From Arcobacter cloacae (lineage in GTDB: Bacteria; Campylobacterota; Campylobacteria; Campylobacterales; Arcobacteraceae), in the NCBI RefSeq assembly GCF_013201935.1, contig NZ_CP053833.1, positions 1,302,001 to 1,366,000 on the forward strand: a stretch of DNA of 64,000 nt, given 5' to 3'. Below are positions 1-59,731 of this stretch, piece by piece. The stretch's first letter is position 1. The number at the start of each line of letters is the position of its first letter. Both the position numbers and the translations under genes were made by a program. The notes below the pieces were generated by a model. The model saw only the letters and a list, made by a program, of their open reading frames with translations, was not told the DNA's origin and did not search any database.

Positions 1-813
1 CTCCTTTTTTGTATAAATTTATCAGGTGAAGAAAGAGTAGTTACTCTTTCTCCTTCTGTAAATGAGATTGTATTTGCTTTAGGTGTTGGAAATAGTGTAG
101 TTGCAAATACTAAACATTGTGATTTTCCAATAGAATCAAAAGATGTTCCAAAACTTGGTGGATATAACAATATTTCATTAGAAAAAGTCTTAAGTGTTAA
201 ACCTACTGTTGTTATAGGTCAAGATTATGATGAAAAATTAAATTCAAATCTAAAAGCTTTAGGAATAGAGACTTTGATTTATAAAACAAATACAATTTCA
301 TTGATTAAAAATACTATTTTTGAATTGGGAACTTTTTTCAAAAAAGAGGAAAATGCAAATATACTTATTTCAAATATAGACAATGCTTTGGCTTCTTTGG
401 ATAATATAGTAAAAAATAAAAGAATTTTGATAGTAATAAGCCCTAAAAAGTCATTGTCAAATGATATTTATGTAACTGGGAATTTTTTATATTTTGAAGA
501 TATTATAAAAGCAAGTGGAAATCAAAACGCATATTTTTCTACTTCGCAAGCACAACCTGTTGTAAATACAGAAAAAATTATAAATATGAATCCAGATATA
601 ATAGTTTTATTAGCACCATTTTTAGAAGCAAATATAAAAGAGCAAGAAAAAATTATAAACTCATGGAAAGAGTTACCTATAAATGCAAGTAAAGATGACA
701 ATATTTATGCAATTGACAAAGAATACGCAGGAATTCCAAGCCATAGAGTAGAGTTATTTATAAATGATTTTAGAAAGATATTAGAAAATGTTAGAGATAA
801 AAGATTACAATAG
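1..813 (+). CDS. ABC transporter substrate-binding protein, BtuF/FecB type (5' partial)
   Basis: The reading frame is open from base 1, so the start and signal peptide lie outside the window. The first residues include TLSPSVNEIVFALG, the opening motif of periplasmic helical-backbone binding proteins for cobalamin, haem or ferric siderophores. Further on are the typical KLGGYNNISLEKVLSVKPTVVIG segment positions and a C-terminal lobe with a NPDIIVLLAP-like strand. It should capture the ligand in the periplasm and deliver it to the permease encoded downstream. The 3' end overlaps the ATPase gene by 26 bp, so the three genes form one operon. The substrate cannot be read from the sequence: vitamin B12, haem or an iron chelate are all possible. 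Confidence 0.88.
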   Translation, partial: LLFCINLSGEERVVTLSPSVNEIVFALGVGNSVVANTKHCDFPIESKDVPKLGGYNNISLEKVLSVKPTVVIGQDYDEKLNSNLKALGIETLIYKTNTISLIKNTIFELGTFFKKEENANILISNIDNALASLDNIVKNKRILIVISPKKSLSNDIYVTGNFLYFEDIIKASGNQNAYFSTSQAQPVVNTEKIINMNPDIIVLLAPFLEANIKEQEKIINSWKELPINASKDDNIYAIDKEYAGIPSHRVELFINDFRKILENVRDKRLQ

Positions 814-58230: not shown

Positions 58231-59496
58231 TTACTTTAAAGCTTGATATGCAATATCTGATCTGCATTTTTTGCCAGCAAAATGAACTTGTCCACATAGA
58301 GCATAAGCTCTATCTCTTGCTTCTTTTATGCTTTTCCCAAATCCAACACAAACTAAAACTCTTCCACCTGTAGCCATTAATTTACCATCAATTTTTTCAA
58401 CACCAGCATAAGAAATATGTGAATTTTGAAGTAAATCATTATCTACTATTTTATCAACTATAATTTCAGCAGGAGTACTTGAACTATAAGGATAATTTCC
58501 ACTAGCCATTACAACACCTACACCAAATTCATCTTTGATTTTAATATCAAGTTTATCAAGTTGTTTTGTAGCACCTTTATAAAATAGTTCAGATACAGGA
58601 GTTTCAAGTAATGGCATTAAAATTTCACACTCAGGATCACCAAATCTAACATTATATTCTAAAATTATTGGTTCACCACGTACCACCATAACTCCAATAA
58701 ACAATACGCCTTCAAAAGGTGCACCTTCTTGTTGCATACCTTTTAAAGTCGGTTTAATAACTCTTTCTTCAATTTTTTTATAAATTTCATCATTTACTAA
58801 AGGAGTTGGAGCATAAGCACCCATTCCTCCAGTATTAGGACCTGTATCTCCATCTCCTACTCTTTTATGGTCTTGAGCAGCTGGTAATACTTTGTAGTTT
58901 TCTCCATCACAAATAGCAAAAACTGATAATTCATAACCATCTAAATACTCTTCAACAACAATTGAAGTTCCCGCATCACCAAAAGCTGCCCCGCTCAACA
59001 TTTCAGAAGCAGCTTTTTTTGCTTCATCTTTAGATTGAGCTATAATTACACCTTTCCCTGCACATAAACCATCAGCTTTTACAACAATTGGTTCAGTCAT
59101 TGTGTCAATAAAATCATAAGCTTCTTTTTCATTTGAAGTTTCTATAAACGCTGCTGTTGGTATGTTATACTTTTTAAGAATATTTTTCATATATACTTTT
59201 GAACCTTCAAGTTGAGCAGCTGCTGCACTTGGTCCAAAAATAGTTAAGCCATTTTCTTTAAATATATCAACAACACCATCTACTAAAGGAGCTTCAGGTC
59301 CTACAATAGTTAAATCAATAGAATTATCTTTCGCCCAAACTGCTAATTCATTATAATCTTTAATATTTATATTTATACCTAATGTATCAGTTGCACCATT
59401 TCCTGGCATAAAATACAAGTTGTGAGCATTTTCTTTGTATATTGCTAATCCAATAGAGTATTCTCTACCACCACTTCCTAGTATCAATATATTCAC
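58231..59496 (-). CDS. purD: Phosphoribosylamine--glycine ligase
   Basis: A 421-residue ATP-grasp enzyme for the second step of purine synthesis. Motifs are [62 protein letters not shown] and VRFGDPECE. The start is GTG with AAGGA six bases before. A probable 6S RNA gene lies directly upstream on the same strand, so purD may be transcribed in part by read-through from it. Confidence 0.96.
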
Positions 59497-59525: not shown

Positions 59526-59697
59526 ATCCAAGTAGCCGTTAACCATCAAAATGGCCCTAAAAGCCACAAATTGTACACAAGAGCATAACTTCAGGAGCAA
59601 AAACACAATGAATTGCTACACACAGTATTGACTACAAAATTGCATACACAAACACATTATCGGACCCACAACAATGGAAATCCCGAACTACTTAGAT
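59526..59697 (-). ncRNA. ssrS: Probable 6S RNA
   Basis: A 172-base, non-coding, less A/T-rich segment. Its ends form a 10-bp helix (59688-59697 with 59526-59535), and inner helices are CCAU with AUGG and GGUCC with GGGCC, around a large central region. The odd positions are G-U on the minus strand and C-A mismatches on the plus strand, at two separate sites, which fixes the strand. A -10 box TAAAAT (59708-59703) lies six bases before the inferred 5' end. Size, long closed rod shape and position before purD fit the epsilon-type 6S RNA as I recall it. The apical part was not resolved, so other structured RNAs are possible. Confidence 0.6.
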
Positions 59698-59731
59698 TAT
59701 TTATTTTATCTAAATATGATTAAATTTGAGT

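What the first reader, a model, noticed from the sequence alone, without database searches (positions are those of the whole stretch)
59526..59697. Strand-resolved structured RNA upstream of purD, probable 6S RNA
A non-coding segment stands out by base composition. Its ends pair over 10 bp. Two independent positions are G-U pairs on the minus-strand RNA but mismatches if read as plus, which is evidence for a minus-strand RNA of about 172 bases. A -10 box sits at the right distance. A large central unpaired region is the hallmark of 6S RNA, which mimics an open promoter. No transcript has been observed here; the purD linkage in related species is from memory.
Basis: partly seen in the sequence, partly recalled or inferred. 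Interest (0 to 1): 0.62.

Follow-up and report, generated by a model that had tools for sequence, protein, structure and literature searches.

The report
6S RNA gene upstream of purD
This stretch most probably encodes the bacterium's 6S RNA, a known RNA that imitates an open promoter to hold RNA polymerase in reserve; public databases list only part of it, under the misleading name 'purD motif', and its centre has a conserved extra helix worth testing.

Summary
On the minus strand, 59697-59526, lies a structured RNA whose ends pair over 11 bp. Rfam's 6S model (RF00013) gives no hit here or in 150 Campylobacterota genomes. Instead Rfam reports RF01069 'purD motif', filed as cis-regulatory, which covers only the 3' two thirds. 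A full-length model built here from order-wide relatives finds the RNA in 192 of 200 Campylobacterota genomes (47 of 47 genera), one place each. RF01069 recovers 7 of the 8 missed. Pairing is backed by covariation (94.7% of cells paired, 513 cells changed on both sides). The model's best match in an E. coli ssrS region is the 6S RNA end to end (12.5 bits, E = 0.0012). RF00013 weakly hits one relative over the same span. The orthologous RNA was shown to be 6S RNA, with pRNA, in C. jejuni and H. pylori (PMC3847290). RNA and purD are separated in several lineages and the RNA survives, which argues against a purD leader. New here: a conserved 5-bp helix across the central bubble (GGUCC:GGGCC), sharing a strand with the local 3' hairpin, hence a candidate switch. 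Transcript, polymerase binding and pRNA are not shown in this species.

The parts
59526..59697 (-). 6S RNA gene, about 172 nt (model match runs 59526-59702)
   Evidence: R1 match 94 bits, full model 1-198; Rfam RF01069 over 59526-59635, 44.1 bits
59703..59708 (-). -10 box TAAAAT (context gaTAAAAT)
   Evidence: sequence; fits gnTAnaAT of epsilonproteobacterial sigma70 promoters (PMC3847290); position conserved in 83/90 homologues
59687..59697 (-). closing stem, 5' arm
   Evidence: pairs with 59526-59536; helix 1 of A4: 9 of 13 pairs with double changes, 95.3% of cells paired
59526..59536 (-). closing stem, 3' arm
   Evidence: as above
59662..59666 (-). GGUCC, 5' side of central region; cross-bubble helix 5' strand and, by analogy with E. 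coli, part of the putative pRNA template
   Evidence: pairs with 59553-59557, 99.1% of cells paired, 21 cells changed on both sides; template role inferred
59553..59557 (-). GGGCC, 3' side of central region; shared strand of cross-bubble helix and local hairpin
59551..59567 (-). 3' central-bubble hairpin GUGGCUUUUAGGGCCAU
   Evidence: found in most homologues, lost in a clade with GGUUC/GAACC
59573..59649 (-). internal (apical) stem region
   Evidence: GUGUAUG/UGUGUAC arms with compensatory changes in Arcobacteraceae (cols 64-69/137-142) and further inner pairs
58231..59496 (-). purD (phosphoribosylamine-glycine ligase), 29 nt downstream of the RNA end
   Evidence: PF01071, PF02844, PF02843; linkage 20-319 nt in 86 of 90 homologues

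Best explanation
The minus strand of 59526-59697 encodes the 6S RNA of this Arcobacter-group bacterium. It is transcribed from its own sigma70-type promoter (-10 at 59708-59703) starting near 59697. It folds into a rod with a closing stem, a central region and an internal stem that imitates an open promoter, and binds the housekeeping RNA polymerase holoenzyme. On nutrient upshift, polymerase would use the 5' central strand (around GUGGGUCCGAU) as template for a short pRNA and be released. Shown here: gene, strand, structure conservation, promoter conservation, near-universal single copy, weak but end-to-end homology to E. coli 6S RNA. Inferred from orthologues: transcription, polymerase binding, pRNA. 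A conserved GGUCC:GGGCC helix across the centre may hold the resting form, and loss of GGUCC into the pRNA hybrid would free GGGCC to form the 3' hairpin (inference).
For: Published: the RNA upstream of purD in C. jejuni is a 185-nt 6S RNA with a 13-nt antisense pRNA, as in H. pylori, and the earlier 'purine riboswitch' is a shorter version of it (PMC3847290). Here: RF01069 over the 3' two thirds; full-length model R1 in 192/200 Campylobacterota genomes, 47/47 genera, one match each, and 7 of the 8 misses have RF01069 above cut-off. Covariation: 94.7% of cells paired against 37-45% when slid, 513 double-change cells against 149 in shuffles. E. coli ssrS (184-366) is hit end to end at 183-362 by R1, next best 3.0 bits. 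RF00013 matches L006 1438-1636 over 1-187/187, 19.8 bits, coinciding with the RNA. Promoter box in 83/90. RNA kept where purD is elsewhere.
Against: RF00013 itself does not reach threshold anywhere in the phylum sample; the L006 match is E = 3.2 across all families. The E. coli match is only 12.5 bits, rests visibly on the closing stem, comes from a briefly calibrated model and was tested on 1.1 kb. No transcript, polymerase binding or pRNA is known for this species. purD linkage in 86/90 leaves room for an additional role as purD leader.
Confidence: 0.93

Rival explanations
1. It is a cis-regulatory leader (purine riboswitch-like) of purD, as Rfam RF01069 files it.
For: RF01069 match; purD follows within 20-319 nt in 86 of 90 homologues; in the window only 29 nt separate the RNA end from the purD GTG, without room for a separate promoter.
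Against: The closing stem starts upstream of the Rfam model and includes its 3' end, making a closed rod. The full RNA is kept where purD lies elsewhere: G034, G038, G050, G061, G090, and in G018 behind a roughly 15-kb insertion. In G034 the resident purD is only 41% identical and the RNA is now followed by the RDD gene that normally follows purD. Published data show an independent abundant 6S RNA in C. jejuni.
Confidence: 0.04
2. Dual-function transcript: 6S RNA that is also the 5' leader of purD, with purD made by read-through or processing. This adds to, rather than replaces, the 6S reading.
For: 29-nt gap with a ribosome-binding-like AAGGAA and no evident second promoter. E. coli ssrS is likewise followed, 75 nt on, by a folate gene, fau. 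Many relatives have a T run right after the closing stem, the window less so.
Against: Not tested here; separation from purD in several lineages shows that the coupling is not required.
Confidence: 0.4
3. A chance structured spacer or a small coding gene.
For: Only a modest single-sequence folding signal (z -2.0).
Against: Covariation and phylum-wide conservation; no ORF of at least 40 aa lies within it.
Confidence: 0.01

Closest known systems
6S RNA of Campylobacter jejuni / Helicobacter pylori (upstream of purD)
   Same: Position upstream of purD, strand, length class (185 nt in C. jejuni), closing stem and central region; sigma70-type promoter (PMC3847290)
   Different: Sequence diverged; transcript and pRNA not yet shown here; cross-bubble helix not compared, as the published structure figure is not held
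Rfam RF01069 purD RNA motif
   Same: Identical locus; the hit covers 59526-59635
   Different: Rfam's model lacks the 5' 62 nt (5' closing-stem arm and 5' central strand) and calls it cis-regulatory
6S RNA of Escherichia coli (ssrS, RF00013)
   Same: End-to-end model match; closing-stem sequence CUGAG..GU.CG / CGGC..CUCGG shared; followed by a one-carbon metabolism gene
   Different: Window RNA is below RF00013's cut-off; different central sequence
Aquifex 6S RNA 'central bulge collapse' helix
   Same: Idea of alternative pairing in the central bulge linked to pRNA synthesis (PMC4227106)
   Different: There the helix is proposed to form after pRNA synthesis; here the cross-bubble helix would use the presumed template strand itself

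Membership tests
6S RNA | Length about 160-200 nt with terminal closing stem | tested here: met
   172 nt, 11-bp closing stem, covarying
6S RNA | Internal (apical) stem beyond a central region | tested here: met
   helices 2-4 in A4 with double changes
6S RNA | Large, mostly unpaired central bubble | tested here: inconclusive
   Central region present, but it holds a conserved 5-bp cross helix and a competing hairpin; single-sequence fold differs
6S RNA | Covariance-model membership (RF00013) | tested here: inconclusive
   No hit in own genome or 150 relatives; sub-threshold full-length hit on L006; reverse test hits E. coli 6S
6S RNA | Near-universal single-copy housekeeping gene | tested here: met
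   192/200 genomes with R1, one match each; 7 more by RF01069
6S RNA | Own sigma70 promoter | tested here: met
   -10 box conserved in 83/90, by sequence only
6S RNA | Abundant transcript, binds sigma70-RNA polymerase, templates pRNA | not testable with these tools
   Transcript and pRNA shown for orthologues only
RF01069 purD motif | Covariance-model score above 41 bits | tested here: met
   44.1 bits
RF01069 purD motif as cis-regulator | Obligate position in the purD 5' leader | tested here: not met
   RNA retained apart from purD in G034, G038, G050, G061, G090 and G018

The most novel reading that the evidence does not exclude
Campylobacterota 6S RNA carries a built-in switch. A conserved GGUCC:GGGCC helix closes the central bubble at the presumed pRNA template, mutually exclusive with the 3' hairpin, so pRNA synthesis flips the RNA between a polymerase-holding and a releasing form.
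Probability: 0.3. Interest if true: 0.5.

Novelty: new member of a known kind. Interest (0 to 1): 0.33.

Why it matters
A global regulator of transcription goes unannotated in a whole phylum (which includes major pathogens) because the 6S model misses it and its own entry is truncated and named as a purD regulator. A full-length model fixes this. The central helix gives a directly testable hypothesis on how this branch of 6S RNA is opened and released.

Tried and rejected
RF00013 scans of window, genome and phylum: silent. R1 on the whole E. coli genome and on another phylum was not possible, so specificity rests on E-values and on purD loci of Neomarinimicrobiota and Pelagibacteraceae without matches. 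Thermodynamic test of the switch: mean probability of the cross helix 0.24 and of the hairpin 0.44 in free RNA, hairpin 0.69 with the template blocked; in the window itself both are low (0.01 and 0.04), so energies do not prove it. Literature searches for 'purD RNA' with 6S RNA, and for ssrS, 6S RNA, integrase and attachment site together, found nothing; the 104-motif paper does not mention purD in its main text.

Full report
Observation. The minus strand of 59526-59697 is an intergenic segment between a HemD-type gene and purD. Its composition is unusual, its ends pair over 11 bp with two G-U pairs specific to the minus strand, and a TAAAAT -10 box lies just upstream, at 59708-59703. End pairing alone is not rare enough (17 of 127,656 windows of that size in the 64 kb), so I turned to homologues.

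What databases say. Rfam reports RF01069 'purD RNA motif' (cis-reg) at 59526-59635, 44.1 bits, and no 6S. RF00013 is silent in this genome and in 150 of 150 sampled Campylobacterota genomes, although it finds E. coli, B. subtilis, Caulobacter and Synechococcus. Absence of an RF00013 hit is therefore uninformative here.

What is known. PMC3847290 reports that the most highly transcribed non-coding RNA of C. jejuni after rRNA and tRNA lies upstream of purD, is 185 nt, starts further upstream than the proposed 'purine riboswitch', folds like 6S RNA, and has a 13-nt antisense pRNA, as in H. pylori. So the kind is known and the Rfam entry is a truncated 6S RNA.

Relatives. RF01069 is in 55 of 60 near relatives. 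Adding the 5' part restores a closing stem with many compensatory changes. A covariance model R1 was built from 21 order-wide sequences, window included, with the central pairs left out. It finds the window at 94 bits and the RNA in 192 of 200 genomes and 47 of 47 genera, one match each; seven of the eight misses, all one genus, carry RF01069 above cut-off. On 90 distinct sequences (A4, which contains the 21 the model was built from and is fitted to the model, so it leans towards the structure) 94.7% of cells pair, with 513 double changes against a shuffled mean of 149 and 35-127 in slid controls. A-C cells number 39 against 523 G-U cells, fixing the strand.

6S homology test. Searching R1 without filters against 1.1 kb of E. 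coli around ssrS, the best of 26 matches is 183-362, plus strand, full model, 12.5 bits, E 0.0012; annotated ssrS is 184-366; the next best is 3.0 bits. Conversely RF00013 matches relative L006 at 1438-1636, model 1-187/187, 19.8 bits, below cut-off, where R1 places the RNA at 1437-1631. Both are weak, but their ends coincide.

Leader or trans-acting RNA? purD follows within 20-319 nt in 86 of 90 (part of the set was fetched through purD, which inflates this). Yet in G034, G038, G050, G061 and G090 the only full RNA and the only purD found lie apart, and in G018 a roughly 15-kb element separates them. In G034 the RNA is now followed by a gene like the RDD gene that follows purD in the window, and the resident purD is only 41% identical. 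A purD leader would not be expected to be kept this way. Read-through into purD remains plausible, as only 29 nt separate them.

Central region. In 91 of 94 sequences all five pairs GGUCC:GGGCC (or GGACC, GGUUC:GAACC, AGUCC:GGGCU and so on) form; mismatched combinations are confined to two odd sequences, plus one with a gap. These columns were left unpaired in R1. 99.1% of cells pair, 21 cells changed on both sides against 3.0 in shuffles; other measures (number of pairs with double changes, pair types) do not exceed shuffles. On a PurD tree column 44 changes at least 5 times and column 47 twice, their partners mostly following and none going the other way; too few for significance. The same 3' strand forms a local hairpin in most sequences, lost in the GGUUC/GAACC clade. 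The two helices exclude each other, so a switch is possible; folding energies neither establish nor exclude it.

Verdict. It is a new member of a known RNA class at a known locus, badly labelled in databases, with one structural feature that deserves testing.

Noticed in passing
L137 1435-17133 (G018:C1): A roughly 15-kb element with a tyrosine integrase (1720-2952, PF00589), a type I restriction-modification system, an IS21-like pair, a resolvase and a Rha-type phage protein sits between a complete 6S RNA gene and a second copy of its last ~105 nt followed by purD: the 3' part of the 6S gene looks like the element's attachment site, with the intact gene restored on the integrase side.
   Followed up: partly
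Campylobacterota genomes: Rfam RF00013 misses 6S RNA in all 150 genomes sampled; RF01069 should be extended by about 62 nt at its 5' end and refiled as 6S RNA.
   Followed up: yes
L019 / G034: purD has gone from behind the RNA and the genome's purD is only 41% identical to the window's: a probable replacement of purD by a distant copy.
   Followed up: partly
L058, L059 / G011: A metagenome bin holds two near-identical RNA-purD loci on separate contigs; with 4% contamination this may be two strains binned together.
   Followed up: no
L188 (E. coli MG1655): E. coli 6S RNA is followed by fau (folate) as Campylobacterota 6S is by purD (purines): both neighbours belong to one-carbon/purine metabolism.
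   Followed up: no
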